Program-made: the position numbers and the translations under genes
In this document: one piece after another, positions 930-21,811 of the stretch
Numbering within the stretch: the first letter of the stretch is position 1
Layout: the number at the start of each line of letters is the position of its first letter
Assembly: GCA_026770585.1 (NCBI GenBank)
Contig: MU646650.1
Span: 388,493 to 410,700, forward strand
From: Baffinella frigidus
Taxonomy: Eukaryota > Cryptophyceae > Cryptomonadales > Baffinellaceae
DNA: 22,208 bases
Direction: 5' to 3'
Notes under the pieces: generated by a model
Databases searched by the model: none
Told to the model about the DNA's origin: nothing
The model's input: only the letters and a program-made list of their open reading frames with translations

Positions 930-1790
930 CGCCCGTACTAACCCAGGACGCGCCAGTACTGGTTTCCCCGGGGACGGGGGGCGGGGGACCAAGGGCATCA
1001 TCAAGAGCCGCAGGGCTGTGAAGAGTGCGTACCCCCCGGGTGTGTGAACGCCACACGCCCTCGTAACCCTCGTAACCTAAGATCCACAGGGGTAAGGTTC
1101 CTTCGGGGGCGGGGGGGTTGGACCGCATGCGGCTCTTGCGGATGCCCTTGGTGGCACAGAGGCGCCAGTCCGTGCGCGTGTCCCCCCAGGACGCGCCCGT
1201 ACTAACCCAGGACGCGCCAGTACTGGTTTCCCCGGGGGCAGGAGCGGTCCACTCTGAACCGTGAGTCCTTCCCCCCTGTGAATGAAGAGTGAGTGCCCCC
1301 CAGGTGTGTGAACGCTACACGCCCTCTCAACCTAGGATCCACAGGGGTGAGGTTCCTTCCCCCCTGTGAATCGTGCCTTTCTCCCTGGGGGGGGGCGGGG
1401 GGGGCGGACCGCATGCGGCTCTTGAGGATGCCCTTGGTGGCACCAAGGGCTCTCTGCAGGCGTTCTACGAAGAAGGATGCAGAGCTGGCAAATTTATCTC
1501 AGATTCAGAGGGGTGATTGTGACCTTGTTTATTACGCTCAGCCTCGAGATGTGGGGGCTTATCTCAGAAAAGGGATTTTTGAATTCGTTTTCTTAAGTCA
1601 ATTCCTGTACAAATTCGTCAACTTATTCTTTTCTCTGCGCATAAGTTGACAAATCTGAAGGGGGATTGACCTAAGAAAACGAATTTAAAAATCCCTTTTC
1701 TGAGATAAGGGCGGGGGCGGGGGTTGGACCGCATGCGGCTCTTGAGGATGCCCTTGGTGGCACAGAGCCGCCAGTCTTTTGCGTGTGCCC
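930..1790. repeat. Host tandem repeat, about three diverged copies
   Basis: A unit starting near GGACGCGCCCGTACTAACCC, continuing with GTACTGGTTTCCCCGGG, then GAACGCCACACGCCCTC and GATCCACAGGGGT, and ending with GACCGCATGCGGCTCTTG and GATGCCCTTGGTGGCAC, occurs at about 945-1170 and 1188-1445. Its last part recurs at about 1725-1765. The third copy is interrupted by the family A element at 1559-1708. The unit is GC-rich with several G runs. Frames read through it are not supported as genes. Confidence 0.75.
1559..1708. mobile_element. Family A foldback element, copy 1 (150 bp)
   Basis: Terminal inverted repeats start TTATCTCAGAAAA and end in the reverse complement TTTTCTGAGATAA; the arms pair over about 50 bases each with few mismatches. 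Perfect 4-bp direct repeats GGGC flank it (1555-1558 and 1709-1712). The second copy at 9311-9460 has exactly the same length, which supports the boundaries. The centre contains ATAAGTTGAC, the motif common in the host repeats. There is no coding capacity, so this is a non-autonomous MITE-like insertion. Confidence 0.88.
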
Positions 1791-2010
1791 AGTTCGCCAG
1801 CCTGCGTGTGCTCCACTTAGTGCGGTCCACTTATTGCGGTCCCCTTGTCGCCGTAAGTGGCCAGGGATTAGCCAGCGTGCGTGCCACGCACCAGGTTACG
1901 AGCCGCATGCTCTGCGTGCACCCTCTCTCTGTCGACGTTTGGATCACTCATCTCTAGGCTGAGAGTCAGGGGGTGCCAGAGCTCTCCTGTGCAGGAACGC
2001 GCGCGGGCCC
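1766..2010. repeat. Host segmental repeat R2, copy 1
   Basis: This segment runs from CGCCAGTCTTTTGCGTG through CCAGTTCGCCAGCCTGCG, CTCCACTTAGTGCGGTCC, TAAGTGGCCAG and CAGGTTACGAGCCGCATG to GGGTGCCAGAGCTCTCC. The same series is found at 2541-2760. Parts recur at 2920-3010 and 3715-3845. Position 1773-1776 (AGTC) is the uninterrupted version of the site hit by the family B element at 2449-2538. Confidence 0.8.
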
Positions 2011-2041
2011 GCCTCGGGGTCAGAATTCCGGTGCATCTTCG

Positions 2042-2439
2042 AATGATCTAGTCCCAACACCAAATAGAATTGATCTCGGGAATGTCCTTCTAAACGAAGA
2101 TTTGTACCAAGAACTTTTAGTGTTTTAAAATATTCGTACTTTTAGGGCTTTAAAATATCTGGATTTGTAGAGCGGTTTTCGCATCTGTCGGCCGCCCACC
2201 GATATGAAATTATGAACAAGGGCTCCAATTCCGGCCACCTTTGGCATTTTTATCACAAAATAAAACTCTAAAACTTCAGAATCACGTCAAAAGTTGCCGG
2301 AATTGGAGCCCTTGTTCATAATTTCATATCGGTGGGCGGCCGACAGATGCGAAAACCGCTCTACCAAGAATCGTTTAGAAGGACAGTTCCCGATATTCAT
2401 TCTATTATGGACCGCGATGAGATCCAGCGTGGGATCATT
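2042..2439. mobile_element. Large foldback element M (~398 bp)
   Basis: The outer inverted arms start AATGATC and end GATCATT, and include the pair TGTCCTTCTAAACGA / TCGTTTAGAAGGACA. Inside are perfect 68-base arms at 2168-2235 and 2296-2363 (left arm begins TAGAGCGGTTTTCGCATC). The inner loop continues as a weaker inverted repeat. The left arm carries about 60 extra AT-rich bases between outer and inner arms that the right arm lacks. I see no convincing target duplication at its ends. No coding capacity. Confidence 0.8.
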
Positions 2440-2448
2440 CCGCCAGTC

Positions 2449-2538
2449 TTATCCGGGGAAACCTATTTTTCTTTCATTTGATGGCAACAAAAATTACTAC
2501 ACAATTCGTTTTTATTAGTAATAGGTTTCCCCGGATAA
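2449..2538. mobile_element. Family B foldback element, copy 1 (90 bp, internally deleted)
   Basis: It has the family ends TTATCCGGGGAAACCTA and TAGGTTTCCCCGGATAA. It lacks about 50 bases of the inner right arm relative to the three 140-bp copies. Perfect 4-bp direct repeats AGTC flank it (2445-2448, 2539-2542). The uninterrupted paralogous target is present at about 1769-1780 (CGCCAGTC then TTTTGCGTG), so the insertion and its duplication can be read directly. Confidence 0.9.
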
Positions 2539-2540
2539 AG

Positions 2541-3010
2541 TCCTTTGCGTGCACCCAGTTCGCCAGCCTGCGCGTGCTCCACTTAGTGTGGTCCACTTAG
2601 TGCGGTCCACTTACTGCGGTCCACTTGTCGCCATAAGTGGCCAGAGATTAGCCAACCTGGGGAGAGGGCGTCTGGTGTCCTCTGATAGCCTGCGTGCCAC
2701 TCACCAGGTTACGAGCCGCATGCCCAGAGAGCGTGCACCCTCTCTCTCAGTTCTCTGTCCAGGGGTTTATGGACTACACGGTCTCGTCCTGAACCTTCAA
2801 GCCTAGACCCTGGACCCTGAACCCTGAACCCTCAACCCTAGACTGTCTACCCTAGAGGTTAGGGTCTAGGGTAGACCCTTGGGGATCCTAGACCCCAGAC
2901 CCGCGGGGGTGTCTGGTTCCACACAGCAGGTTACGAGGCTCATGGCCAGCACATGGTTGTAAGTTGACATGCTGTCAACTTACGGCGAGGGGGTGCCAGA
3001 GCTCTCCCGC
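2541..3010. repeat. Host segmental repeat R2, copies 2 and 3, with telomere-like spacer
   Basis: Copy 2 follows the family B element. A block of CCCTAGACC / CCCTGAACCC variants and their inverted form GGTCTAGGG fills about 2797-2905. After it comes a partial copy beginning at the CAGGTTACGAG box and ending in GGGTGCCAGAGCTCTCC. Confidence 0.7.
2959..2983. repeat. Perfect 11-bp hairpin of GTAAGTTGACA
   Basis: GTAAGTTGACA (2959-2969) is followed by TGC and then the exact reverse complement TGTCAACTTAC (2973-2983). It uses the same motif scattered elsewhere as single copies. Confidence 0.8.
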
Positions 3011-3400
3011 GCGCGGGTGGCAGAGCGTGCTGTTTCGTCAGGTTGTGGTCCTCAAGCGCTGGTCTTCACTCCCATGGTCCATAACCTGCTTGCGCTCAGG
3101 ATCGCTGGAAAGGAGGGTACGCTCTGGGCCGCGGCGGCAAGGGGTCCTTTCGCCGGGTGGGACAGCGTTTCGTGGCGCCGAGCGGGGGTGTCCGCGTGCA
3201 CGTGCGCGGGCCCGCCTCAGGGCCATCTCACACGCGCGCGGGCCTGCCTCGGGGTCATCTCACACTCGCGCGCGCGGGCCCACCTCAGGGCTAGCGCTCG
3301 CTCGAGCCCGCCTCGGGACCATCTCGCTGCTTCCCGGCGATATTTTGAGGGATCAATCGTGGGGCACGTTGAGCTTTCTGGGTGTGGGTGGTACACCACG
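3010..3400. repeat. GC-rich short tandem repeats
   Basis: Units of about 30-50 bases containing GCGCGGGCCCGCCTC and CATCTCACAC recur about four times between 3205 and 3330. A 196-codon frame crosses this region but is made of Arg/Ala/Gly-rich repeat translation and is not supported as a gene. Confidence 0.6.
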
Positions 3401-4050
3401 CCAGGCCGCACGTGCGATTTCGCCTAAAGTTAACTCTGGACCACACGTGCGAATTCGCCTAAAGTTAACTCTGGAGGTTTGGGATGGGGTAGTGGTGACC
3501 AGGCGCCCCACGCCCGGATGTTTGTGGACCGCAAGGTCTCTTCCTAAACCATAAACCCTAAACCCTAGACCCTAGACCGTCTACCTGAGAAGAAGAACAA
3601 GAAGAGGAAGGGTTGCGCGGGGAGGGACCCTGGACCCTAGACCCTAGACCGTCTACCCTAGGGTTTAGGGTCTAAGGTAGACCCTCGGGGATCCTAGACC
3701 CTAGGCCCGCGGGGGTGGCTGGTGCCACACAGCAGGTTACGAGCCGCATGCCCAGAGTCTCTGGGCACTCTCTCTCTCACTTCTCTGTCCAGTGCACCCT
3801 CTCTCTCACTTCTCTGTCCAGGAGTTTATGGACTACACGGTCTCTTCTTAAAGCCGAGACCCTAGACCCTAGACCGTCTACCCTAGAAGAAGAAGAAGAA
3901 GACGAAGAAGAAGAAGAAGAAGAAGAAGAAGAAGAGGCAGAGGAAGAGGAAGAAGGGTGGTGCGGGGAGAGACCAGGATTCGCCTAAAGTCAACTCTGGA
4001 GATTTGGGGTGGCGCGGGGAGAGACCATGCGCCCCACGCCCGGATGACGT
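3400..4050. repeat. Direct repeats, telomere-like blocks and GAA microsatellite
   Basis: The string TTCGCCTAAAGTTAACTCTGG occurs at about 3418, 3451 and, with one change, 3979; the last two are followed by CGCCCCACGCCCGGATG. CCCTAGACC-type telomere-like runs lie at 3550-3580, 3628-3710 and 3856-3885. A GAA/GAG trinucleotide array fills 3885-3955. A partial R2 copy is at 3715-3845. Confidence 0.75.
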
Positions 4051-5060
4051 CTCGCTTCATCATCCACATCGCCACCTGCCATGTGAGAAGTGTTCACATC
4101 TGTCGACCACTAACAGAATGAAACAATGCCACACGTTCACGGTTCTGGTACTAAACCGTGATAGCCACCTGGCATGTGAAAGGTGTTCACATCTGGTGGC
4201 CAGCTAATAATACACACCCTGGGGTTTGTTTATTCCCGGTGTTGTACCAGAACCGTCAACAGCTGGCATTGTTTCATTGTCACACTCACACGTGATCTGT
4301 GAGCGGTGTTCGCGTCTGTTGGCCATGGAAAGATCTGCCATGTGAGCGGTGTTTATCCATGGAGCAACCATCGCATGGTACTTTCATAGGCTAACGGCCT
4401 GAAAATGGGGTAGTTAGGCATACGGCATTGCCTAGGACCTCCTACCGTAGGCCGAGGGATCCCAGGACCAAAAAGTCTCGGCCTACGGTAGGAGGTCCTA
4501 GGCAATGCCGTAGGCCTAACTACCCCATTTTAAGGCCGTCACCCTATTAACTTGGACAAAGACCATGCAAAACCCATAGAGGTGTTCGCATCTATCGGCC
4601 ACTGGAAGATCTCGTGGCCACGCAACTGTCCAAGCCAGAGTCTAAGAAGGGGTCGCCAAAAGTCAATTTCTCCTCAGGACAGTGGTTTTCAAAAGTCAAA
4701 AGCGCACTCAGATGCGCTTTTGAATGAATTTACCCCCTCCAACACTCTGGCGTGGCAACTGTTGGGCACGCGAAGAATGAAACACTCGCAAAGGTTGACG
4801 GCTCTGGTACTCAACAGTCATTCGACCTTCGCGCGGTGGTGCCATCTGCCCACGCAAACATCTGTTGGCCACGCATCTGTCGCCCTCGGAAACAATGAAA
4901 CAATACCACACGTTCACGGTTCTGGTACAACACCGGCATTGGACGAACCCCAGGGTATGCGGCGAAAATCGGGGGGTAATCAGTGCATCTCCCCTTGTTG
5001 AAACGCGCGTTCTCACATGTCCCTCCGCACCACGTCACGCGTCTGCAAGGACATGGGGCT
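4050..5060. repeat. Host repeat R3 (GTGTTCACATCTG family)
   Basis: Boxes ATGTGA(G/A)(A/C)GGTGTTC, CATCTGT(C/T)GGCCA, AATGAAACAATGCCACACG and TTCACGGTTCTGGTAC recur at about 4060-4200 and 4865-4935, and in inverted or partial form at 4230-4380, 4560-4620 and 4740-4820. Element H copy 1 is inserted in it. A hairpin CAAAAGCGCA / TGCGCTTTTG lies at 4697-4722 between weak inverted GCCAGAGT / ACTCTGGC boxes (4634 and 4751), possibly a degraded foldback element. Confidence 0.65.
4384..4549. mobile_element. Family H foldback element, copy 1 (166 bp)
   Basis: The ends are TCATAGGCTAACGGCC and GGCCGTCACCCTATTA. Long near-perfect arms contain ATGGGGTAGTTAGGC, CCTAGGACCTCCTACCGTAGG and a short loop. Perfect direct repeats ACTT flank it (4380-4383, 4550-4553). 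The copy at 18563-18728 has the same length of 166 bp. Non-coding. Confidence 0.88.
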
Positions 5061-5098
5061 GGCATGCCACACGCTGGGCTACGGACCTTCCATCAAAC

Positions 5099-5238
5099 TT
5101 ATCCGGGGAAACCTATTTTTCTTTCATTTGATGGCAACGAAAATTACTACACAATTCGTTCTTATTGGTAATATCAAAGCATTTGTGTAGTAATTTTCGT
5201 TGCCATCAAATGAAAGAAAAATAGGTTTCCCCGGATAA
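5099..5238. mobile_element. Family B foldback element, copy 2 (140 bp)
   Basis: The arms start TTATCCGGGGAAACCTA and pair almost perfectly for about 60 bases, through GGCAACGAAAATTACTACAC. The centre is short and AT-rich. Perfect direct repeats AAAC flank it (5095-5098, 5239-5242). Same length as copies 3 and 4. Confidence 0.9.
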
Positions 5239-5314
5239 AAACGTCTACTTGCCCGACGCTGTTAACTTTGAGGCCTTATCTGATGCAAATTTGGTTACGG
5301 TGTATGTTGGACAT

Positions 5315-5457
5315 TCATCTCGAAAGATAACTGAATCAGTTCCCTACTAGCGTTTTCGTTTAATTAGGAGACCTAATTCAATTTACTATGCCTTAACCAA
5401 TTTCTCCTATTCCACCTCCTATTCAAAAGGAACTGATTCAGTTATCTTCCGAGATGA
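5315..5457. mobile_element. Family E foldback element, copy 1 (143 bp)
   Basis: The ends are TCATCTCGAAAGATAACTGA and its complement ATAACTGAATCAG-type arm ending CGAGATGA. The AT-rich centre contains further inverted boxes (CAATTTACTATGCC, TTTCTCCTATTC). Perfect direct repeats ACAT flank it (5311-5314, 5458-5461). Confidence 0.88.
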
Positions 5458-5532
5458 ACATAGCGCAGTCGAAACCTTCGGACTCCACCAAGTGGTTGCT
5501 GGAAGGTCGTTGCTCGCAGGCTATCACGTCCT

Positions 5533-5726
5533 CCACCCTGGAGGGGACTTGCGGCCAATCCCGAATAACCCTTTATCGCAAAAGTTGACATGTTTTATAC
5601 CACTAACATACATATCAGACCTTTTTGTACCAGATCCATTCATCACGGGGGCGCCACATTGTGGCGCCATCTCCAAGGGGAGTTGACTTAAGAATGCCAA
5701 AATACCATCATGTTCCATCCAGGGTG
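5533..5726. mobile_element. Foldback element G, copy 1
   Basis: The left end CCACCCTGGAGGGGACTTG pairs with the right end CATGTTCCATCCAGGGTG. Inside are AAAAGTTGACATG, TTTTTGTACCAGATCC and a perfect 9-bp hairpin GGCGCCACA-T-TGTGGCGCC (5650-5668). Element F begins directly after it. A separate full copy, without F, is at 7792-7976. No clear target duplication is seen. Confidence 0.7.
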
Positions 5727-5771
5727 TTATCTGAGAGAATGCAATCAACGCCTTTCCTGCAACGAAAATCA

Positions 5772-5872
5772 CTGCCTAGCACCTCCTACCGTAGGCCGAG
5801 ACTTTTTGGTCCTGCGATCCCTCGGCCTACGGTAGGAGGTCCTAGGCAATGCCGTATGCCTAACTACCCCAT
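5772..5872. mobile_element. Truncated family H palindrome inside F
   Basis: The paired arms CCTCCTACCGTAGGCCGAG / CTCGGCCTACGGTAGGAGG and the loop GACTTTTTGGTCCT match the core of the 166-bp H elements. The right arm continues to GCCTAACTACCCCAT. The left arm stops at CTGCCTAG, so the left end is missing. Duplicated at 6511-6611. Confidence 0.75.
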
Positions 5873-6020
5873 CCCATCGCAATGGGATCGTACTAATCGC
5901 AGCAAAGCATATGTGTGCAGCAACTTTCCTCGGCATCAAAGGCTCTTCAACCAATCCAGTCTCTGAGACAAGTCTCCACTGTTACTTCTTAAGTTAACAG
6001 AGGTTCCACTTTTGCTTTGA

Positions 6021-6176
6021 GACGTCCCAATCTCGACTTTTGTCTCGGTGGGCCGCGCTCTTCCAGGGCGTGCCACAAAGACAAACGGCAGCCGCGTCAA
6101 GAGGAATGCCGCAGACAACGACGTCAAGGATTTCATCTCGGACCATACCAGAATCTGCCCTGATGAAAAGGCGTAA
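6021..6176 (+). pseudogene. Possible coding relic inside element F
   Basis: A frame open for 51 codons with no ATG start ends at TAA (6174-6176). Its last part reads AADNDVKDFISDHTRICPDE with sensible amino-acid composition and moderately GC-rich third positions, unlike the surrounding repeat translations. I do not recognise a family. It could be a captured host exon or a degraded transposon exon, or chance. The same frame is repeated in copy 2 at 6760-6915. Confidence 0.25.
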
Positions 6177-6300
6177 GATAGCATCATTTGATGCCTGGAA
6201 TAGCATATACACCCTTACCTTCCGCGTGGGGAGCCTAAGCCCACCCACCCTGCGCAAGAGGAACGTGAATGAATACATTCTCTGAGATAAGGTCCGCTGG

Positions 6301-6465
6301 CGAATAACCCTTTATCGCAAAAGTTGACATGATTTATACCACTAAAATACATATCAGACCTTTTTGTACCAGATCCATTCATCACGGGGGCGCCACATTG
6401 TGGCGCCATCTCCAAGGGGAGTTGACTTAAGAATGCCAAAATACCATCATGTTCCATCCAGGGTG
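6301..6465. mobile_element. Element G, copy 2, left end missing
   Basis: This is the part of G inside the second 739-bp unit. It starts at CGAATAACCC and so lacks the CCACCCTGGA left end. It runs to the right end CCATCCAGGGTG, where F copy 2 starts. Confidence 0.75.
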
Positions 6466-7029
6466 TTATCTGAGAGAATGCAATCAACGCCTTTCCTGCA
6501 ACGAAAATCACTGCCTAGCACCTCCTACCGTAGGCCGAGACTTTTTGGTCCTGCGATCCCTCGGCCTACGGTAGGAGGTCCTAGGCAATGCCGTATGCCT
6601 AACTACCCCATCCCATCGCAATGGGATCGTACTAATCGCAGCAAAGCATATGTGTGCAGCAACTTTCCTCGGCATCAAAGGCTCTTCAACCAATCCAGTC
6701 TCTGAGACAAGTCTCCACTGTTACTTCTTAAGTTAACAGAGGTTCCACTTTTGCTTTGAGACGTCCCAATCTCGACTTTTGTCTCGGTGGGCCGCGCTCT
6801 TCCAGGGCGTGCCACAAAGACAAACGGCAGCCGCGTCAAGAGGAATGCCGCAGACAACGACGTCAAGGATTTCATCTCGGACCATACCAGAATCTGCCCT
6901 GATGAAAAGGCGTAAGATAGCATCATTTGATGCCTGGAATAGCATATACACCCTTACCTTCTGCGTGGGGAGCCTAAGCCCACCCACCCTGCGCAAGAGG
7001 AACGTGAATGAATACATTCTCTGAGATAA
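6466..7029. mobile_element. Composite element F, copy 2
   Basis: Duplicate of 5727-6290 within the tandem 739-bp repeat, with one seen base difference (6962). It contains the same truncated H palindrome at 6511-6611. Confidence 0.65.
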
Positions 7030-7039
7030 GGTCCGCTGG

Positions 7040-7101
7040 CGAATAACCCTTTATCGCAAAAGTTGACATGATTTATACCACTAAAATACATATCAGACCT
7101 T
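7040..7101. mobile_element. Element G, third partial copy
   Basis: The sequence matches the start of the 739-bp unit (CGAATAACCC to CATATCAGACCT), then switches to unrelated sequence. This marks the 3' breakpoint of the tandem array. Confidence 0.8.
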
Positions 7102-7164
7102 CCTGGCGCTCCGGCGCATCTGATGCAGTTTTTCCGCGGTGTCAGCCCACGCGTCAAACACAAA

Positions 7165-7605: not shown

Positions 7606-7791
7606 GGTCGCACTTGTACCACCATCCCAAACCAGCAACCATCACACGGTACTTGTCGCGCCAGTAGCGCTTCCGATCCACCATGGCCATCCACCCGGCG
7701 AACACCATCCCGTATCGCCGGCGGTCGTACCCCGCCAGCACAACTGCCAGCGAAACCACATTTTTCAATTTGTCGACACCGCCACCCTGGA

Positions 7792-8682: not shown

Positions 8683-8852
8683 CCACACGAGGCTACTCAG
8701 GCGAACAGAATAAAAGGGACTTTGAAAGTTTTGTGGGGAAATGATCACGTTTCCGCCCGCTGAGCGGTCGGTCGGTTACCTTGTCCGTGATCATTTCCCC
8801 ACAAAACTTTAAAAGTCCCTTTTATTCTGTTCGCCTGGGTAGCCTCATGTGG
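8683..8852. mobile_element. Foldback element J (~170 bp)
   Basis: The arms begin CCACACGAGGCTACTCAGG and end CCTGGGTAGCCTCATGTGG. They pair for about 70 bases with few mismatches, through AATAAAAGGGACTTT and GGGGAAATGATCACG. The loop is about 35 bases of GC-rich sequence. No clean target duplication is visible, so the outer boundary is uncertain by several bases. Confidence 0.8.
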
Positions 8853-9153
8853 GAGGTGGCGAGTGCGTGGATGGTGGCACGGGGACTGAACCGGACAGGG
8901 CGGGTACCGAGACGACTTTTCCGCCCCAAGGGCTCACCAAATCGCTTCGCCCAAATAGACTACCCCTTGAGTGCCACGCCAGGTCACAAACTCGTTTTGA
9001 AGGTTGAGGCTCCCATAAGTGATTCCTGGTACAAATGAAACATTATTGCGCATGGCAACGGCTCAAAGGGCTAGACATTGCTGACTTTTGAAGTGCTTCC
9101 AAAACAGAAAATCTAAGAATTAACTAGACAAATTCCCTCTTGTGACCTGGCGT

Positions 9154-9244
9154 GGATTAACGGACGAACAATCGCCCGTGGAAGCCCTAGGCAGGTCCTA
9201 CCGCCCTACGGTAGGGCGTATGAGCCTACTGGTCACTTAAGGGA
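9154..9244. mobile_element. Family I element, copy 1 (left end degraded)
   Basis: The right end CACTTAAGGGA is followed by TA. Internal boxes AATCGCCCGTGGAAGCCCTA, GGCAGGTCCTA and CCCTACGGTAGGGCGTATGA match the 100-bp copy at 19622-19721. The left end, expected TCCCTTAAGTG, is not recognisable. Confidence 0.7.
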
Positions 9245-9310
9245 TACGCCAGAGCAAAGGAAAGAGGCGGGACCGTGGATGCGGCCTCGGAGGTGGCGAG
9301 AGCGTGGGTC

Positions 9311-9460
9311 TTATCTCAGAAAACGAGTTCTAAAACTCGTTTTCTTAAGTCAATCCTCCTACAAATCCGTCAACTTATTCTTTACCCTCCGCATAAGTTG
9401 ACGAATTTGTAGGGGGGTTGACTTAAGAAAACGAGTTTTAGAACTCGTTTTCTGAGATAA
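9311..9460. mobile_element. Family A foldback element, copy 2 (150 bp)
   Basis: The ends are TTATCTCAGAAAACGAGTT and AACTCGTTTTCTGAGATAA. The arms pair for about 65 bases and the centre contains ATAAGTTGACGAATTTG. Perfect direct repeats GGTC flank it (9307-9310, 9461-9464). A diverged unfilled paralogue of the flank lies near 8858-8900 (GGTGGCGAGTGCGTGG... CTGAACCGGACAGGG). Confidence 0.9.
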
Positions 9461-10320: not shown

Positions 10321-11110
10321 ATTGGATCACTCAGCGTGAGTCTCGAGAGTAACGAAGAATAAGAAGAAGAAGAAGAAGAAGCCGCAACCACCTACTCAAC
10401 CCCCTCGTCAGTTGCTTTACAGAAACGCATCGGTGTCCCTCCCTAGAGTGCACATTACCTCACTCTAGGTCCGGCATCGCTTTGTCGACAACGTATAAGC
10501 CGCATTGCGGCTTGCGTCATTGCGGCTTACGTGGCGGCCTGCCTCCAGCCCCACCCACCAAACCCTGGGTCGTCCACCCTTACTCATAACGAGCGGTCGA
10601 AGCAAAGGAGAAAAAGGGGCGGCGAGAGCCACGCCTGTGCCGTTTCCCGCTACGTACAAAGTGTGCCAGATTTCGTTACCGCCCTAGCACAGCTAGACGT
10701 ACTCACAAAGAATAGTCGAAGCACACGAGAAGAAGGGTAGGGGCTATTCGTGAGTTGAAACGCTGGGTTATGGTACAAATCCGTTAGATTTGGAGAGGGG
10801 CACACCTGTGCCATTATCGCAGCCTGTTGCAGCGCAGCCATCTCCTGTACAGGGCGAAAGGCGAGGTTCGTTAAGTTGACATACACGGACCACTTACGTC
10901 AAGTTGACATACGCGACCGCGGTATGGAACCAAGGGGAGAGATGGGACGAGACCAGAGTGCTCTAGCAGCCCGTAACCACCCCGGAGGGTGGAGGGTGCA
11001 CATACCGCGCGCCTGTCACGACCCAGAAGCTCGCCATGTAGCAGGCAGCAAATCGGTGAGAGCAAATGGCCCGAGGCAGAGGTAGATGGTGTCGATCAGA
11101 TTTCATCCGG
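10320..11110. other. Low-copy sequence with AAGTTGACAT motifs
   Basis: A small AAGAAGAAG array is at about 10357-10381. A direct repeat of CATTGCGGCTT(G/A)CGT is at 10503-10530. A diverged R1 unit is at 10740-10790. Two AAGTTGACATAC boxes are at about 10874 and 10900. No frame here has the codon bias of the exon at 14417. Confidence 0.5.
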
Positions 11111-11116
11111 ACCAGT

Positions 11117-11259
11117 ATTTTCCGAAAATACGATTTCAAAAGTATTTTCAACGAAAATTACCACAAAATTTGCCTGTACTTTTTAAAATGGTCACGTCCT
11201 TGTAGTAGTTTTCGTTGCAAATCGGACCGGAGTTCCCCGAAATCGTATTTTCGGAAAAT
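11117..11259. mobile_element. Degraded foldback element P
   Basis: Perfect 21-base arms (ATTTTCCGAAAATACGATTT plus one C, 11117-11137) pair with 11239-11259. Inside are inverted copies of CAACGAAAATTACCACAA and TTGTAGTAGTTTTCGTTG, which resemble the inner arm of family B. No target duplication could be read. Confidence 0.7.
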
Positions 11260-11459
11260 GCTCGCCGCGATTAGATTGGTGCCGCGACGAGACACCCGCG
11301 GCGGGCCTGTGGACAGAACCCTGAGGCGAGCCCGTGAAAGTGCATGCACTCTGCGCCAGAACATCCGCCTAAGCTCCCCCTGAAAACCACAGCCTTGAGT
11401 CAAACGCCGGCCCCCAGAACCGGTCCATCTAAACGAAATGGCAACTTATTGCCGGGGAT

Positions 11460-11688: not shown

Positions 11689-11885
11689 CGTTGAGGGTTC
11701 AGGGTTGAGGGTGTAGGGTTCAGGGTTGAGGGTGTAGGGTTTAGGGTTCAGGGTGCAGGGTGTAGGGTGTAGGGTGTAGGGTGTAGGGTGTAGGGTGTAG
11801 GGTATAGGGTTTCGGGTGTAGGGTTTGGGGTTTGGGGTTTAGGGTTTCGGGTTTCGGGTTGAGGGTTTTGGGTTTAGGGTTTAGG
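11689..11885. repeat. Degenerate telomere-like array (TGTAGGG/TTTAGGG)
   Basis: About 28 consecutive 6-7-base units of the forms GGGTGTA, GGGTTTA, GGGTTCA and GGGTTGA run on the plus strand. Position and degeneracy suggest an interstitial or subtelomeric array, not a chromosome end. Confidence 0.88.
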
Positions 11886-12486: not shown

Positions 12487-12628
12487 CCATCTCGCCAGAT
12501 AACTGGATCAGTTCCTTTTCAATAGGTGGTTGCATATGAGAAATTAGTTGGGGCATAGTAAATTCAATTAGGCCTCCTAATCAAATGAACGCTAATTAGG
12601 GAACTGATTCAGTTATCTTTCGAGATGA
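12487..12628. mobile_element. Family E foldback element, copy 2 (142 bp)
   Basis: The ends are CCATCTCG and CGAGATGA, with arms AGATAACTGGATCAGTTCC / GGAACTGATTCAGTTATCT. Its interior is inverted relative to copy 1 (the TATGCC and TTTCTC boxes appear on the other strand), so it inserted in the opposite orientation. Perfect direct repeats ACTT flank it (12483-12486, 12629-12632). Nearby repeat units read CCACTTCCGGCGTAGGGG, close to the unfilled site. Confidence 0.88.
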
Positions 12629-15688: not shown

Positions 15689-15711
15689 GTACATGTACCG
15701 GTACATGTATG
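15689..15711. repeat. GGTACATGTACC palindrome doublet
   Basis: The palindrome GGTACATGTACC is directly followed by GGTACATGTA. The other repeat copy at about 15158-15170 has only one GGTACATGTA. Likely a short local duplication. Confidence 0.7.
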
Positions 15712-15852
15712 CGCCGCCGCATCAGCATTCCCGGGAGATGGAAGGCAAAGGTTTATTGAAAGCAGAAAAGCGCACCCCTATCCGGCCGCATGGCAGTCTA
15801 CATGTAGACCAGCGACCGCTCCCTCCCGCACCGCGAGCGCCTGTGAGATCTA

Positions 15853-16080
15853 CAGGGATACCTTGATTACAAGAAAACGCCTCCCCGTAGGCCCCTACAG
15901 TACAGGGGTACCTCGCTCATAAGAAACCGCATCCGCCTAGGACCCTACAGTAGGCTATCCCTAGCTAGGGTCCTAGGGGGTGGGCGGTTTCTTATGAGCG
16001 AGGTACCCCTGTAGGCCTATGCCTAGGGCCCTATGGTCGTCCTAGGGGGGTGACGTTTTCTTGTAATCGAGGTACCCCTG
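15853..16080. mobile_element. Family C element, outer copy of a nested pair
   Basis: The ends are CAGGGATACCTTGATTACAA and TTGTAATCGAGGTACCCCTG, with TA on both sides (15851-15852, 16081-16082). Its middle is split by a second C element at 15903-16011. Removing the inner one restores ...CCTACAG-TA-GGCCTATG..., matching the centre expected from other copies. Confidence 0.82.
15903..16011. mobile_element. Family C element, inner copy (109 bp)
   Basis: The ends are CAGGGGTACCTCGCTCATAA and its complement. The arms contain GAAACCGC and CCTAGGACCCTACAGTAGG. The flanking dinucleotide TA is duplicated (15901-15902, 16012-16013) inside the outer element. TA duplication and short inverted ends are what Tc1/mariner-type transposases produce; assignment to that group is inference. 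Confidence 0.88.
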
Positions 16081-16485
16081 TATGCGCCGCCGCATCAGAA
16101 TTGCCGGGAGATGCACTGCGACGGTTTATTAAAGCGGCGCAGACAGCGCATCCCTCTCCGGCCGCAGGGCACTCTACATGTAGAAGTGCGACCCGCTCCC
16201 TCTCGCACCGCGAGCGCCTGTGGGATCTAGCCCTGCAGCGAAGCGGTGCTCTGCGCACAAGGAACGGCGGGTTGCTCCCTGGTCCGGAAGAAGAAGCGAT
16301 TCCTTGATCTGGCTCGGTTCCGGAACAGGCCGGCCCGAAACGCGAAACTCGGAACTCTACACCCAAGAAACGAAGAAACGACAGGCTAGCCCATCTTGGA
16401 GATCTGGGTCTGGAGGCGCTGGTTGTGCGCTGCGAGCTCCTCAACCTGGTGGAGTGTTTCAGGGTTAAGGTGCACAGGGTTATTA

Positions 16486-16577
16486 CAGGGGTACCTCGCT
16501 CATAAAAAAACGCCCCCGCCCCTAAGACCGCCGTATGACCCTAGGCATGGTCCTACTGTAGGGTCCTAGGGGGGGGC
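16486..16577. mobile_element. Family C element, right end missing
   Basis: It begins CAGGGGTACCTCGCTCATAA preceded by TA. It reaches the mirrored core GTAGGGTCCTAGGGGGGGGC, then passes into unrelated sequence, so the terminal right arm is gone. Confidence 0.75.
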
Positions 16578-16668
16578 GACAAAGCTCTGTCTAAGCGTAT
16601 GTGTACTGCAAACCCGGGCTGTCAACTTGAGGATAGTGGGGTCAACCCGACTGAGGCGGAGCTAGGTA

Positions 16669-16854
16669 TCCCTTAAGTGACCAGTAGGCTCATACGCCCT
16701 ACGGTAGGGCCCTAGGCGCGAGCAGGAGCGGATCGCTGAGACGACGGAAAACGTCCGCATGCTCGAATGGGTGCCCCCCCCCTCCTAAACCCTATACCTA
16801 GGACCTGCCTAGGGCTTCCGCGGGCGATTATTCGCCCGTTGGTCACTTAAGGGA
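16669..16854. mobile_element. Family I element, copy 2 (186 bp, carries extra insert)
   Basis: The ends are TCCCTTAAGTGACC and GGTCACTTAAGGGA, with TA on both sides (16667-16668, 16855-16856). Compared with the 100-101-bp copies it holds about 85 extra bases in the centre (roughly 16715-16795), non-palindromic and GC-rich. Confidence 0.82.
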
Positions 16855-16896
16855 TAGGCCTCGAGCACCCAGGCCTCCGTTGGTAGACATACGGCC

Positions 16897-17250
16897 ATGT
16901 TGGTGAATGGAACAGCCAACGCAATTTATCCTCCGTGTGGGCTTAGGCGCATAATGGCCGTGTTGGTATCAATCAACCTGAGTGAGAGACACCCGGGCCT
17001 TCAAAAATTAGGGTCTGCGAAACACGGTCGTTGTGCGGTCCTCAATTGTGTAAGGCGTAACGGAAACCGCTACAAAATGCAAGTGCAAATTAAGGACCGC
17101 AAACAAAGCGGTGTGCGGTCCTTGATTTATTCATGTCCACACGTCAACTTTGGGCGTGTGCCATATTGTGGTACCTTATCTTCGAGTAAGCCCTGTAACA
17201 CCTGTATGCAAAACAGGACAGGCCGCGAGGACCTGATGCTTATCCCTTAA
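16897..17250 (+). CDS. Doubtful 117-codon open frame
   Basis: The frame is open from ATG at 16897 and its end lies inside the left end of family I copy 3. The middle has several cysteines (RCAVLNC, YSCPH, PYCG, PCNTC) but third positions show no GC bias, unlike the exon at 14417. The sequence also contains inverted GTGCGGTCCT / AGGACCGCA boxes (about 17034, 17092 and 17111). More likely chance or a captured fragment than a gene. Confidence 0.15.
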   Translation: MLVNGTANAIYPPCGLRRIMAVLVSINLSERHPGLQKLGSAKHGRCAVLNCVRRNGNRYKMQVQIKDRKQSGVRSLIYSCPHVNFGRVPYCGTLSSSKPCNTCMQNRTGREDLMLIP

Positions 17251-17343
17251 GTGGCGAGTAGGCGCATACGCCCTACCGTAGGGCCCTAGGACCTGCCTAG
17301 GACCTCTTGGCTCGCAAATTTGGGGGCCTGGCCACTTAAGGGG
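17243..17343. mobile_element. Family I element, copy 3 (101 bp)
   Basis: The ends are TCCCTTAAGTGG and CCACTTAAGGGG with TA on both sides (17241-17242, 17344-17345). The core CCCTACCGTAGGGCCCTAGG is the family palindrome. A family C element follows four bases after its right TA. Confidence 0.85.
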
Positions 17344-17349
17344 TATCGA

Positions 17350-17466
17350 CAGGGGTACCTCGCTCATAAGAAACCGACCCCCCCTAGGACCCTACAGTAG
17401 GACCACGCATATGGCCCTACGGTGATCCTAGGGGGGGGGTGCTTTCTTGTGAGCGAGGTACCCCTG
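17350..17466. mobile_element. Family C element (117 bp)
   Basis: The ends are CAGGGGTACCTCGCTCATAA and GAGCGAGGTACCCCTG. The right side is followed by TA; the left neighbour is GA, so that side of the duplication is changed or lost. The centre has CCTAGGACCCTACAGTAGG and CCCTACGGTGATCCTAGG. Confidence 0.82.
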
Positions 17467-17626
17467 TAGTGGTGGGCCTCGGCCTCCACCACACGATACA
17501 ACGGAGGTGGCTCGGGAGTATCTAGCTCTGTCTCAGTTCAATTGGTCTCATCATTTGTCAAACCGGGCCGCGGCCCGGGGCAGTGGGGGCAGGGTGTGAA
17601 GAGGGCGCGGGGGAAAGGCGGAGAAA

Positions 17627-17695
17627 CCCTAGACCCTAGACCCTAGACCCTAGACCCTAGACCCTAGACCCTAGACCCTAGACCCTAGACCCTAG
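17627..17695. repeat. Perfect (CCCTAGA)n array
   Basis: Nearly ten uninterrupted copies of the heptamer CCCTAGA. It resembles a telomere repeat (TCTAGGG on the other strand) but is far cleaner than the degenerate arrays at 11689, 18903 and 20712, suggesting recent expansion or addition. Confidence 0.92.
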
Positions 17696-17821
17696 GGAGT
17701 TGATTTCCCTGTTCCGCGGTACAAATTTGTCACCTTTTGGCGTCAAACCCCAGAAAATGACAAGACCAATTCAACTCAGGCAGAGCTGGGGTATGCATCA
17801 GAGGGGGGATGCACGCAAGGG

Positions 17822-17890
17822 CGCCAATAAATGTCCAATAACTATCCAATAAAGGCCCATAAAATGTCCAATAAATGTCCAATAATCTTC
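17822..17890. repeat. CCAATAAATGT short tandem repeat
   Basis: TCCAATAA(A) units recur about five times in 65 bases, AT-rich compared with the neighbourhood. Confidence 0.75.
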
Positions 17891-18164
17891 GTTTACTGTT
17901 GTATACTCGGTGATATATGACTCTGGGTAGGTGACTCTCTAGAGCATCTTTCTGCTCTCGCGTGTCGCCTCCCAGCGTCTATCAACGTCCAACAAATGTG
18001 AGCGCACCTGGTGTTTGAAGTGGTGGGCCTCCTCGGCGGCCGCGCGCAGCTTGCGGTTCTCCTCCTCCAGCGCCGCGAACTTCTGCGCTCACGCCGCCGT
18101 ACACGCCCCGTCAGCACTCGAGGTGTCGTGATACACGGCGCCCTGGTCCTGGCTGCTTGGTGAC

Positions 18165-18318
18165 GCCGAGGGGCCCTATGGTGGCCCTAGGGGGGTGGGC
18201 GGTTCATCTCTGCGGCACAACCTGGCGGCATTCTGCGCCCCACCCCAGCCGCCTCAGACGAGGTCCCTCGCTCTTGAGAAACCTCCCACCCCCCTAGGAC
18301 CACCATAGGGCCCCTAGA
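18165..18318. mobile_element. Split family C-like arms around host sequence
   Basis: GGGGCCCTATGGTGGCCCTAG with GGGGGGTGGGCGGTT (about 18170-18205) and CTCGCTCTTGAGAAACC with CCCCCCTAGGACCACCATAG (about 18267-18316) are inverted to each other. They enclose about 60 bp of R6-type sequence. The left arm is absent from the paralogous R6 copy beginning at 18729. A second right arm is at 18807-18857. Confidence 0.6.
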
Positions 18319-18562
18319 GGCATAGCGCAGCTTGCGGTTCTCCTCCTCCATCGCTGCGAACTTCTGCGCTCACGCCACCGTACACGCCCCGTCAGCACTC
18401 AAGGCATCGTGCACGACGTGCTACGTCAGCACTCCAGGCACCGTGCCCGAGTCAGCATCGAGCCCTCAAGTCGCTGCGAACTTCTGCGCTCACGCCACCA
18501 CCGTACACGCCCCGTCAGCACTCGAGGTATCGTGATACACGGCGCCCTGGTCCTGGCTGCTT

Positions 18563-18728
18563 CAATAGGGTAACGGCCTGAAAATGGGGTAGTTAGGCCT
18601 ACGGCATTGCCTAGGACCTCCTACCGTAGGCCGAGACTTTTTGGTCCTAGGATCCCCCGGCCTACGGTAGGAGGTCCTAGGCAATGCGGTATGCCTAACT
18701 ACCCCATTTCCAGGCCGTTAGCCTATGA
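18563..18728. mobile_element. Family H foldback element, copy 2 (166 bp)
   Basis: The ends are CAATAGGGTAACGGCCTG and CAGGCCGTTAGCCTATGA, with the same interior as copy 1. Perfect direct repeats GCTT flank it (18559-18562, 18729-18732). The uninterrupted paralogous target CCTGGCTGCTTGGTGAC is at 18149-18162, so the 4-bp duplication is read directly. This excludes a TA target despite the TA within its ends. Confidence 0.92.
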
Positions 18729-18902
18729 GCTTGGTGACTTCTCTGCGACACAACCTGGCTGCATTCTGCGCCCCGCCCCAGCCGCCTCAGACGAGACACA
18801 TGGGGACCTCGCTCTTGAGAAACCGCCCACCCCCCTAGGACCACCACAGGGCCCCTAGAGGCATAGCGCAGCGTGCGGTTCTCCTCCAGCGCCGCGAACT
18901 TC

Positions 18903-19090
18903 GGTTTTACGGTTTACGGTTTACGGTTTAGGGCTTAGGGTTTGGGAGCGCTCCGGGCACCGTACAAGTGCTCAGAAACAGCCTCGCGGGTCTCCTCCTC
19001 CAGCTGGAGGAGGTTGAGGGTAGAGGGTAGAGGTTGAGGGTAGAGGGTAGGGTTGAGGGTAGAGGGTAGAGGGTTAGGGGTTCGTCCTCT
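18903..19090. repeat. Degenerate telomere-like repeats (TTTACGG, GAGGGTA)
   Basis: GGTTTAC units at 18903-18950 shade into GGGTTTGGG. A second array of GGTTGAG / GGTAGAG units occupies 19010-19085. Confidence 0.85.
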
Positions 19091-19246
19091 CATTCGCCGC
19101 GAACTTCTGCTCCGGGCAACCGTACAGGGGTTGCTCAAGAACAAGGACACGCACTCTGTCCTAGCTAGGGGTCTGCAGTAAGCATGCCGCCGAACACGCC
19201 CCGTCAGCACTCCAGGCATCGTGCACGACGTGCCACGTCAGCACTC

Positions 19247-19386
19247 TTATCCGGGGAAACCTATTTTTCTTTCATTTGATGGCAACGAAAATTACTACAC
19301 AATTTGTTCTCATTAGTAATATTAAAGCATCTGTGTAGTAATTTTCGTTGCCATCAAATGAAAGAAAAATAGGTTTCCCCGGATGA
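19247..19386. mobile_element. Family B foldback element, copy 3 (140 bp)
   Basis: The ends are TTATCCGGGGAAACCTA and TAGGTTTCCCCGGATGA. Perfect direct repeats ACTC flank it (19243-19246, 19387-19390). The unfilled paralogue at 18426-18445 reads GTCAGCACTCCAGGCACCG, matching the joined flanks exactly across the junction. Confidence 0.93.
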
Positions 19387-19621
19387 ACTCCAGGCACCGT
19401 GCCCGAGTCAGCATCGAGCCCTCTAGTCTTGCACGGCCTTCACGGATGGGAATACATGATGGCATGATGGGTTCGGTCCGTAACAATCGCACGTTTCTCT
19501 CTCCATGCACCGTACAAGCGCTCAGACACAGCCTCATGAAATCTGCCAGACAAAGGCATGGAGCGCAGACCCCAAATCCGGTGTGGATTCTTAAGCTCTG
19601 GGCTCTTGCAACCAACCCATA

Positions 19622-19721
19622 TCCCTTAAGTGACCAACGGGCGAATAATCGCCCGTGGAAGCCCTAGGCAGGTCCTAGGGCCCTACGGTAGGGCGTATGA
19701 GCCTGCTCGCCACTTAAGGGA
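19622..19721. mobile_element. Family I element, copy 4 (100 bp)
   Basis: The ends are TCCCTTAAGTGACCAACGG and GCCACTTAAGGGA with TA on both sides (19620-19621, 19722-19723). The unfilled R7 copy near 20299-20320 reads AACCCAGATATCCCTGTACG, consistent with insertion at its TA apart from a two-base difference. Confidence 0.86.
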
Positions 19722-19744
19722 TATCCCTGTATGTGAGAAGGGGC

Positions 19745-19900
19745 CACGCCACGATGACCTGTGTACCAACTTGGCATTTTTAAAAGTCAATTCACCCACA
19801 AATCTGTCAACTTAGTCCGGATTCCGGACAACAATAGTTTTAGTAGTGCACAAATAATAGAAATACGCAATCAAGTTGGTGCACAGGTCATCGTGGCGTG
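19745..19900. mobile_element. Foldback element L (156 bp)
   Basis: The arms CACGCCACGATGACCTGTG / CACAGGTCATCGTGGCGTG continue to CCAACTTG with one mismatch. The centre is AT-rich and carries AAAAGTCAATTC and CTGTCAACTTAG. Perfect direct repeats GGGC flank it (19741-19744, 19901-19904). The ends differ from the TYAT families but the target has the same RNNY form. Confidence 0.8.
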
Positions 19901-20007
19901 GGGCGTGGATTGTTCAGGAGGCTCGTGACCTGTTCCAAACGAGCGAGCAGTGGCATGGGGCGCAGACCCCACATCCGATGCGGGTTCTTACGGCCCGGGT
20001 TCGTGTA

Positions 20008-20054
20008 CAGGGGTACCTCGCTCATAGGAAACCGCCCCCCCCTAGGACCCTACG
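20008..20054. mobile_element. Family C left-arm fragment
   Basis: TA then CAGGGGTACCTCGCTCAT and GAAACCGCCCCCCCCTAGGA, broken at the CCCTAC of the core and followed directly by another C-type end. Confidence 0.7.
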
Positions 20055-20056
20055 TA

Positions 20057-20189
20057 CAGGGATACAGGGGTACCTCGCTCATGAGAAACGTCCACCCCCC
20101 TAGGACCACCGTAGGGCCCTAGGCATGGGCCTACTGTAGGGTCCTAGGGGGGGGCGGTTTCTTATGAGCGAGGCACCCCTGCATCCCTG
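20057..20189. mobile_element. Family C element nested at a CAGGGATATCCCTG site
   Basis: CAGGGA then TA then a C element (20065-20181, ends CAGGGGTACCTCGCTCAT and GAGCGAGGCACCCCTG) then CA then TCCCTG, with TA on the outside at 20055-20056 and 20190-20191. The inner insertion split the palindrome CAGGGATATCCCTG at its central TA; the right TA has become CA. The arms have CCTAGGACCACCGTAGGGCC and a mirrored right arm. Confidence 0.78.
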
Positions 20190-20384
20190 TACGTGAGAAG
20201 GGCCGTTCGGGAGGCTCATGCCCCGTTCCAAACGAGCGAGCAAGGCAAGGAGCGCAGACCCCAAATCCGGCGCGGGTTCTCAAGGCCTGGGTTCGTGTAA
20301 CCCAGATATCCCTGTACGTGAGAAGACATCCCTGTACGTGAGAACCCAGATATCCCTGTGCGTTGTTGTAACCCAGATATCCTT

Positions 20385-20960
20385 GCGTTCGGGAGGCTCA
20401 TTACCTGTTCCATGCGCGCGAGCATGGCCTTGCTCGCCCCATTTCACGGCACACGCCCTAGGTATCCAAAGGACATGCAATAATGGCCATGCTGGTGTCG
20501 ATCCCCAATAAACAAACATTTTCGTCCTGCCTGGGACAACCATCCAGCCCTCTCGCCTCACGAAATGTGTTGGGGCATGTGAGGAGGAGCACGGAGAGCG
20601 TTCGGGAGGCTCGTTACCTGTTCCATGCGCGCGAGCATAGCCTTGCTCGCGCCGTCGAAGCCCCCTGCCACGTCGCCCCCCCCACCCGCGCCACTCTGCC
20701 CTCCTGCTGCCGTAGGGTGTAGGGGTTAGGGTTTAGGATGCAGGGTTTAGGACGAGTATGGCTCGCCCCGTCGCCCCCCCCACCCGCGCCGCTCTGCCCT
20801 CCTGCTCGTGTAGGGTGTAGGGTTGAGGGTGTAGGATTTAGGTTTTAGCGTCGCCTTGCTAGCCCCGTCGAAGCCCCCTGCCCCGTAGCCCCCCCCACCG
20901 GAGCCGTTCTGCCCTCCTGCTCGTGTAGGGTTGAGGGTTGATGGTGTAGGGTGGAGGGTT
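20385..20960. repeat. Host tandem repeat R8 (CTTGCTCGC...CTGCCCTCCTGCT)
   Basis: A unit with GTTCGGGAGGCTC(A/G)TTACC, CATGCGCGCGAGCAT, CCGTCGAAGCCCCCTGCC, GTCGCCCCCCCCACC and CTCTGCCCTCCTGCT occurs at about 20388, 20600, 20757 and 20855. The later copies alternate with telomere-like GTAGGGT runs. Confidence 0.75.
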
Positions 20961-21118
20961 GAGGGTTGATGGTGTAGGGTTTAGAGATGTTGGATTGGGG
21001 ATTAGGGGTTAGGGATGAGGGTTTGGGGTTTGGGGTTTACGGTGGAGGGTGGAGGGTGGACGGTGGAGGGTGCAGGGTTTAGGGTGTAGGGTGTAGGGTG
21101 GAGGGTGGAAGGGTTTAG
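20712..21118. repeat. Degenerate telomere-like G-rich arrays
   Basis: Runs of GGGTGTA, GGGTTTA, GGGTTGA, GGGTGGA and GGGATGA units at 20712-20750, 20812-20845 and 20925-21115, always on the plus strand, separated by R8 copies. Confidence 0.85.
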
Positions 21119-21298
21119 CCCGGAGCGCGCCACAGATTCAGGCCAGCTTGCTCACAACCCCCCCAGAGGTAATCGTGCTTCTTCCCTCACGTCTCTCCCT
21201 GCATAGAGCCCTCTCGCTGCCAGCTGTGCTACGCGATCAACCGCCTACGCTGCCCTCTCCCAATGCATACACAGTGGCCATGCTGGTTCTCGATCCGT

Positions 21299-21451
21299 AC
21301 CACCAACCCTCCCGGTTGGACCAAATCATCGATTTTAGGCTTGAAATTTACCCTTGTAGAGACCCCAGATCTGGGGTCTCTGCAAGGGTACGTCAAGGGC
21401 AAATCTACAATCTAAACTCGACGATTTGGTCCAATCGTGAGGGTTGGTGGT
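21299..21451. mobile_element. Foldback element N (~153 bp)
   Basis: The ends are ACCACCAACCCTC and GAGGGTTGGTGGT. The arms include TTGGACCAAATC / GATTTGGTCCAA. The centre is the perfect palindrome AGAGACCCCAGA-TCTGGGGTCTCT. The left arm is shorter than the right by about 15 bases. No clear target duplication is seen. Confidence 0.78.
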
Positions 21452-21484
21452 GATGAAGAGACTTTCCTTTCCCAAGCACCACCC

Positions 21485-21624
21485 TTATCCGGGGAAACCT
21501 ACTTTTCTTTCATTTGATGGCAATCAAAATTACTACACAGATTCTTTTATATTACTAATAAGAACGAATTGTGTAGTAATTTCCGTTGCCATCAAATGAA
21601 AAAAAAATAGGCTTCCCCGGATGA
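21485..21624. mobile_element. Family B foldback element, copy 4 (140 bp)
   Basis: The ends are TTATCCGGGGAAACCTA and TAGGCTTCCCCGGATGA. Perfect direct repeats ACCC flank it (21481-21484, 21625-21628). The arms carry a few more mismatches than copies 2 and 3. Confidence 0.9.
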
Positions 21625-21680
21625 ACCCGCCACGTACTGCAAGGGTCTCGCGCGGAGGGTCTGGGGACCAAGCCCAATGT

Positions 21681-21806
21681 ACATCTCGAAAGATAACTGA
21701 ATCATTTCCCTAAATAGCGTGTTCATTTAATTTACTATGCCCCAAATAATTTCTCCTATTCAACCTCCTATTGAAAAGGAACTGACTTAGTTATCTTCCG
21801 AGATGA
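21681..21806. mobile_element. Family E foldback element, copy 3 (126 bp)
   Basis: The ends are ACATCTCGAAAGATAACTGA and TTATCTTCCGAGATGA. It has lost about 16 bases of the left interior relative to copy 1. Perfect direct repeats ATGT flank it (21677-21680, 21807-21810). A family C element abuts its right duplication. Confidence 0.87.
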
Positions 21807-21811
21807 ATGTA

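What the first reader, a model, noticed from the sequence alone, without database searches (positions are those of the whole stretch)
1555..21810. Unrelated-looking foldback families share an RNNY 4-bp target duplication and TYAT ends
Reading boundaries from the inverted repeats gives perfect 4-bp duplications at twelve insertions: family A GGGC and GGTC; B AGTC, AAAC, ACTC, ACCC; E ACAT, ACTT, ATGT; H ACTT, GCTT; element L GGGC. Every one is purine-N-N-pyrimidine. The A, B, E and H ends all fit or nearly fit TYAT (TTATCTCAG, TTATCCGGGG, TCATCTCG, TCATAGG), though their interiors are unrelated. This suggests one transposase lineage with a symmetric RNNY target mobilising several MITE families. 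Superfamilies known to make 4-bp duplications include Chapaev, Sola1 and Ginger; I cannot choose among them.
Basis: partly seen in the sequence, partly recalled or inferred. Interest (0 to 1): 0.88.

Follow-up and report, generated by a model that had tools for sequence, protein, structure and literature searches.

The report
Hairpin jumping genes sharing one target
An alga's genome carries many different short hairpin-shaped mobile DNA pieces that nearly all duplicate the same kind of 4-letter target when they insert, which points to one shared moving enzyme that has not yet been identified.

Summary
Eleven of the twelve listed insertions (families A, B, E, H) have exact 4-bp duplications of the form purine-N-N-pyrimidine (RNNY) and TNAT-type ends; the twelfth (L) has other ends and its one other copy found does not repeat it. 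In the window plus 20 stretches of the same genome (187,822 readable bases) a fixed-rule scan gave 67 foldbacks with such ends and a 4-bp duplication: 61 of 67 are RNNY against 31% background, and shifted-flank controls give 0-3 rows. With TYAT at both ends, 3-, 5- and 6-bp duplications give none. Unoccupied sister copies, one inside the window, fix the duplication at 4 bp. TA-duplicating foldbacks live alongside, so at least two systems coexist. The host is most likely the cryptophyte Baffinella frigidus. No transposase with these ends was found: Harbinger-type none, piggyBac one single-copy exon, integrase-type 18 hits of which five were examined (three LTR-like, two undecided). CMC/Chapaev did not complete; Sola and Academ untested. 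New variant of a known kind (MITEs).

The parts
1559..1708 (.). Family A foldback, TTATCTCAG ends, duplication GGGC (1555-1558 and 1709-1712)
9311..9460 (.). Family A foldback, duplication GGTC
2449..2538 (.). Family B foldback, 90-bp short copy, TTATCCGGGG ends, duplication AGTC
5099..5238 (.). Family B foldback, duplication AAAC
19247..19386 (.). Family B foldback, ends TTAT and TCAT, duplication ACTC
   Evidence: unoccupied site
18386..18472 (+). Unoccupied sister copy of the 19247-19386 insertion site, 97% identical over 87 bp, ACTC present once
21485..21624 (.). Family B foldback, duplication ACCC
5315..5457 (.). Family E foldback, TCATCTCG ends, duplication ACAT
12487..12628 (.). Family E foldback, ends CCAT and TCAT, duplication ACTT
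21681..21806 (.). Family E foldback, ends ACAT and TCAT, duplication ATGT
4384..4549 (.). Family H foldback, ends TCAT and TAAT, duplication ACTT
18563..18728 (.). Family H foldback, ends CAAT and TCAT, duplication GCTT
11103..11273 (.).
21932..22097 (.).
19745..19900 (.). Element L, ends CACGCC, flanks GGGC on both sides; not supported as a member of the group

Best explanation
These are several families of MITEs: non-autonomous, almost fully palindromic DNA transposons, mostly 126-171 bp in the window. One transposase lineage most likely moves them. It recognises ends that begin T-N-A-T followed by a family-specific inverted repeat, cuts the element out, and joins both ends to the two target strands 4 bp apart at a symmetric site, preferred form CC-RNNY-GG; gap repair leaves the 4-bp duplication. 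Shown here: the exact 4-bp duplication, the end letters, the symmetric target and unoccupied sites. Inferred: that one lineage serves all these families, that it is a DDE-type cut-and-paste enzyme, and that it is or was encoded in this genome.
For: 61 of 67 elements RNNY across A, B, E, H, M, S, K and single elements, 35 of 40 without B; 4 bp only, none at 3, 5, 6 bp with TYAT at both ends; symmetric target logo with R 95% and Y 95% at the outer duplicated bases and C/G flanks; RNNY in 23 of 27 rows with two TNAT ends but 3 of 24 with none; unoccupied sister sites; B, S, M and three single elements share sequence inside; TA-duplicating families in the same DNA do not show it.
Against: No transposase with these ends was found. 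The inverted repeats agree only over the first four to six bases. A (3 of 11) and K (2 of 3) break RNNY, and three exceptions (TCTT, TGTT, ACGG) lie at sites with unoccupied sister copies, so they are real. A, E, H and K share no interior with B or each other.
Confidence: 0.7

Rival explanations
1. The mobiliser is an ordinary member of a named superfamily with 4-bp duplications (Sola, Academ or CMC/Chapaev), so the MITE families are new but the enzyme type is not. This is compatible with the single-lineage reading.
For: 4-bp duplications fit those superfamilies (Sola, Academ and Chapaev lengths are recalled; iMITEdb passages list Academ at 3 bp). Most MITEs trace to known superfamilies (5531 of 6012 insect families).
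Against: Nothing positive here: PF02992 (CMC) did not complete, and Sola and Academ were not tested. Chapaev ends are CAC-like (recalled), unlike TNAT.
Confidence: 0.5
2. A retroviral-type integrase (Ginger, IS481EU or an integrating Polinton-like virus) moves the MITEs.
For: Ginger1 makes 4-bp and IS481EU 4- or 15-bp duplications (PMC10045372 passages); Polinton-like viruses are expanded in cryptophytes and are sometimes bordered by about 4-6-bp repeats (PMC12220804 passages); the genome has 18 integrase-core matches.
Against: IS481EU termini are TGT...ACA, not TNAT; no 5- or 6-bp duplications with TYAT at both ends; of five integrase hits examined three have LTR-retrotransposon domains. Two were undecided and 13 were not examined by Pfam.
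Confidence: 0.1
3. Several unrelated transposases converged on similar end letters and a similar target.
For: The inverted repeats differ after the fourth to sixth base; A and K depart from RNNY more often; A, E, H and K share no interior.
Against: Length, outer target bases, flanking C/G and end letters agree together, while unrelated foldback families in the same DNA duplicate TA; B, S and M share an interior.
Confidence: 0.13
4. The duplications are an artefact of choosing boundaries inside palindromes.
For: A first scan did give spurious even-length matches from palindromic flanks; without the end rule 4-bp matches are at chance.
Against: Fixed-rule scan with shifted-flank controls of 3, 0, 1, 1 rows against 68, and unoccupied sister sites.
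Confidence: 0.01

Closest known systems
MITEs / foldback elements of eukaryotic cut-and-paste transposons
   Same: Short, interspersed, non-coding, inverted terminal repeats, target duplication
   Different: Many families joined only by TNAT ends and a symmetric RNNY 4-bp target; almost fully palindromic
Introners of Symbiodinium microadriaticum and Chrysochromulina (PMC9860276, passages seen)
   Same: Algal elements with 4-bp duplications; the Symbiodinium ones also have inverted repeats
   Different: Introners sit in genes and are spliced out; whether these elements are spliced was not tested
IS481EU (PMC10045372, passages seen)
   Same: Some families make 4-bp duplications
   Different: TGT...ACA termini and also duplications of about 15 and 25 bp
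piggyBac
   Same: 4-bp duplication
   Different: Always TTAA (5199201 passages), which is pyrimidine first and purine last; here R first and Y last. The genome's one piggyBac-domain exon is single copy
TA-duplicating foldback families I, C and P of the same genome
   Same: Also foldbacks, interspersed and nested with the RNNY families
   Different: TA precedes 64 of 74, 28 of 32 and 9 of 14 of their ends, and a P copy sits in an E copy at a duplicated TA (L019)

Membership tests
MITE | Short, multicopy, inverted terminal repeats, target duplication | tested here: met
   67 elements; B query of 149 bp had 2038 first-look candidates in the genome, 40 scored at 95-100% identity on the + query strand
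MITE | No transposase gene inside | tested here: met
   Elements of 90-200 bp, one 366 bp with a nested insert
One Repbase superfamily for A, B, E and H (rule for non-autonomous elements) | Same duplication length and terminal positions 1-11 aligned with at most one mismatch (PMC4455052 passages) | tested here: not met
   Same length, but the ends agree only over four to six bases
Tc1/mariner or pogo | TA duplication | tested here: not met
   4-bp duplications with unoccupied sites; PF13358 and PF03184 searches did not complete
piggyBac | TTAA duplication | tested here: not met
   61 of 67 RNNY; none of the 67 is TTAA
Harbinger / PHIS | DDE_Tnp_4 transposase in the genome | tested here: not met
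   0 matches to PF13359; six-frame search by exon, so weak for intron-rich genes
Ginger | Integrase-core transposase outside LTR retrotransposons, between matching ends | tested here: inconclusive
   18 matches; five scanned: three with LTR-type domains, two with the core alone; ends not examined
IS481EU | TGT...ACA termini | tested here: not met
   End pairs listed; the definition
CMC / Chapaev | CMC transposase (PF02992) | not tested
   Search sent 15 times, never answered
Sola | 4-bp duplication (recalled) | tested here: met
Sola | Sola transposase | not testable with these tools
   No profile known to me and no sequence at hand
Academ | Academ transposase | not tested
   No profile at hand
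Introner | Copies in genes that are spliced as introns | not tested
   No gene annotation or RNA data at hand

The most novel reading that the evidence does not exclude
An undescribed cut-and-paste transposase superfamily, with TNAT ends and a symmetric CC-RNNY-GG 4-bp target, has driven the spread of about ten or more MITE families in one cryptophyte genome.
Probability: 0.25. Interest if true: 0.7.

Novelty: new variant of a known kind. Interest (0 to 1): 0.5.

Why it matters
MITEs are usually tied to their transposase through longer shared ends. Here the link is a target rule plus about four end letters, kept across families whose inverted repeats have diverged. If one enzyme serves them all, it tolerates an unusual range of inverted repeats, and that would explain how one cryptophyte genome filled with different hairpins. 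The rule also gives a concrete way to find the enzyme: look for a gene bounded by TNAT ends and an RNNY duplication.

Tried and rejected
Boundary choice as an artefact: rejected for the TNAT families by fixed-rule scans with shifted-flank controls and unoccupied sites. A first family-agnostic scan gave an excess of even-length matches from palindromic flanks; repeated with palindromes removed, 4-bp matches overall are at chance (55 against 50-67 in five controls), and the RNNY bias sits in the rows with TNAT ends (recount).

Long elements with the same ends in the fetched stretches: two rows, against controls of 1, 1 and 0, both spanning two neighbouring MITEs. Apparent larger A-type element at 5728-6291 and 6467-7030: a tandem-duplicated composite with flanks GGTG/GGTC, not counted.

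Transposase by Pfam in the whole genome: PF13359 none; PF13843 one exon, single copy, no convincing matching ends in the readable DNA around it; PF00665 18 matches, open frames listed for all 18, five scanned by Pfam. PF02992, PF03184 and PF13358 were sent but did not complete. Ten open frames of the fetched stretches gave one Pfam match, a MYND finger.

Viruses as carriers: B and E end patterns had no exact match in viral contigs (the tool warns that records of this genome may be left out); the A pattern had one, in an IMG/VR contig with no foldback there, so chance.

In print: transposon + TSD + RNNY as whole words, 0 papers. Searches with Baffinella (15 of 113 listed, none holding the word) and CCMP2293 (6 of 3,352 listed, none holding it) showed no paper on mobile elements of this alga. 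The library holds open-licence papers only, and these lists were capped.
Full report
What the window is. The window is G000:C342:388493-410700 of a genome of 382,457,362 bases in 1364 contigs. An exon from that genome (in L029) is 100% identical over 96% of the query to a protein labelled MMETSP0987, taxon 697907, which the taxonomy merges into Baffinella frigidus, a cryptophyte. The host is therefore most likely this alga. The window is rich in repeats, has telomere-like 7-base arrays, and gave no Rfam match at gathering thresholds.

The observation. Inverted repeats were located independently. Element L has GGGC on both sides, but its ends are CACGCC, and the only other copy in the sample lacks equal flanks. 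I found one more RNNY insertion (11103-11273, GATT) and one insertion with TAAT/TCAT ends that breaks the rule (21932-22097, TGTA).

Beyond the window. I fetched 20 stretches of the genome around B copies. With the window this makes 187,822 readable bases. The stretches were chosen for B, so B is enriched; the other families were not chosen. A fixed-rule scan asked for AT at end positions 3-4, at least one TYAT end, at least 13 of 20 complementary end bases, length 60-800 and equal 4-bp flanks. It gave 68 rows; with the right flank shifted by 5, 9, 13 and 17 bases it gave 3, 0, 1 and 1. With TYAT at both ends there are 46 rows at 4 bp and none at 3, 5 or 6 bp. After removing one nested duplicate row, 61 of 67 are RNNY: 12 of 13 in the window, 49 of 54 outside, 35 of 40 without B. 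The background upstream of TYAT is 627 of 2006, 31%.

By family: B 26 of 27, A 8 of 11, E 6 of 6, H 4 of 4, M 6 of 6, S 4 of 4, K 1 of 3, others 6 of 6. The six exceptions are TGTT (B), TCTT, TATC, TAGC (A), TGTA, ACGG (K). One row among 'others' (L021 7503, GGCC) has ends like the TA-type C family and is probably chance. Family labels come from short end strings and are rough.

Is it tied to the ends? A scan that ignores end letters gives 55 rows at 4 bp, no more than its controls (50-67). Within it, rows with two TNAT ends are RNNY in 23 of 27, with one in 4 of 4, with none in 3 of 24. The bias therefore belongs to the TNAT group.

Unoccupied sites. Sister copies without the insert show the four-base slot once (138 rows, output cut, many of them from one low-complexity flank; these are rows I saw): window B at 19247 against window 18386-18472 (97% over 87 bp, ACTC intact); A in L024 with the non-RNNY TCTT (intact); B in L020 with the non-RNNY TGTT (intact) and with GGGT (eleven rows, not all with GGGT intact); a B copy inserted in an S-type element (ACTT, intact); A in L021 (ACTC, one base different in the sister) and K in L025 (ACGG, one base different in the sister). 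So the duplication is 4 bp, and at least TCTT and TGTT are real insertions rather than misread boundaries.

Target and ends. Pooled over both strands the target reads C-C-R-(A)-(T)-Y-G-G, with R 95% at the first and Y 95% at the last duplicated base. End pairs among the 67: TTAT/TTAT 35, TAAT/TCAT 14, TCAT/TCAT 8, TCAT/TTAT 3, others 7. The shared end is TNAT rather than TYAT.

Relations between families. By blastn among the 67 elements, all 27 B, all 4 S, 5 of 6 M (the window's 11103-11273 among them) and 3 others form one component of 39; A (11), E (6), H (4) and K (2) form their own, and 5 elements stand alone. Departures from the majority shared by both arms against one-arm departures: A 33 against 58, B 7 against 38, E 0 against 39, H 0 against 21, S 0 against 46. 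For A this suggests hairpin subfamilies that spread from master copies; for the others it does not.

Other systems nearby. Ends of families I (CAGGGGTACCTCG), C (TCCCTTAAGTG) and P (GAGCG) are preceded by TA in 64 of 74, 28 of 32 and 9 of 14 cases, and a P copy inserted in an E copy shows the duplicated TA (L019). At least two mobilising systems therefore act in this genome.

The enzyme. Harbinger-type transposase: 0 matches. piggyBac domain: one exon, single copy, no convincing ends around it in the readable DNA. Integrase core: 18 matches; of five examined by Pfam, two carry Gypsy-type domains, one a weak retroviral SH3-like domain below its cut-off, and two the core alone. CMC, pogo and Tc1 searches did not complete; Sola and Academ could not be tested. 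Six-frame search by exon is weak for intron-rich genes, and MITEs may outlive their enzyme, so absence is not proven.

Most likely working. A cut-and-paste transposase binds inverted repeats that start TNAT and joins the ends 4 bp apart at a symmetric site; repair yields the RNNY duplication. The duplication, the site and the ends are shown; the enzyme and its unity are inferred. I hold one lineage at about 0.7.

Known kinds. As MITEs the elements are ordinary. 4-bp duplications are known from several groups (PMC10045372, passages) and from introners of Symbiodinium and Chrysochromulina (PMC9860276, passages). By Repbase's rule for non-autonomous elements (PMC4455052, passages) A, B, E and H would not be placed together, which is what makes the shared target informative. 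I rate this a new variant of a known kind.

Noticed in passing
window 15851-16082, 17349-17467, 20008-20181, 21814-21926: Foldback family I with ends CAGGGGTACCTCGC next to TA; the end resembles pogo/Tigger inverted repeats (recalled). TA precedes 64 of 74 such ends in the sample.
   Followed up: partly
window 16667-16856, 17239-17345, 19619-19724: Foldback family C with ends TCCCTTAAGTG next to TA; TA precedes 28 of 32 such ends in the sample.
   Followed up: partly
window 5728-6291 and 6467-7030: Two 564-bp blocks 99.8% identical, 739 bp apart: a recent tandem duplication that contains part of an H-type element and A-like outer ends with flanks GGTG/GGTC.
   Followed up: partly
window 8683-8852, 8974-9155, 19745-19900: Foldbacks whose ends begin CCAC or CACG and show no consistent duplication; a possible further group to which L may belong.
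   Followed up: no
L029 892-1773: Exon of a piggyBac-domain gene, single copy in the genome and matched by a transcript-derived protein; possibly a host gene.
   Followed up: partly
L016 4231-4506: Two different foldbacks (B-like and S) stand side by side with only ACTT between and ACTT on both outer sides, as if the second had inserted at the first one's duplication.
   Followed up: no
window 425-660, 5580-5600, 9345-9430: A motif like AAGTTGACA (and its complement) recurs in several otherwise different repeats.
   Followed up: no
window 11690-11885, 17626-17695, 20923-21118: Degenerate arrays of 7-base telomere-like units (TTTAGGG type, also CCCTAGA).
   Followed up: no
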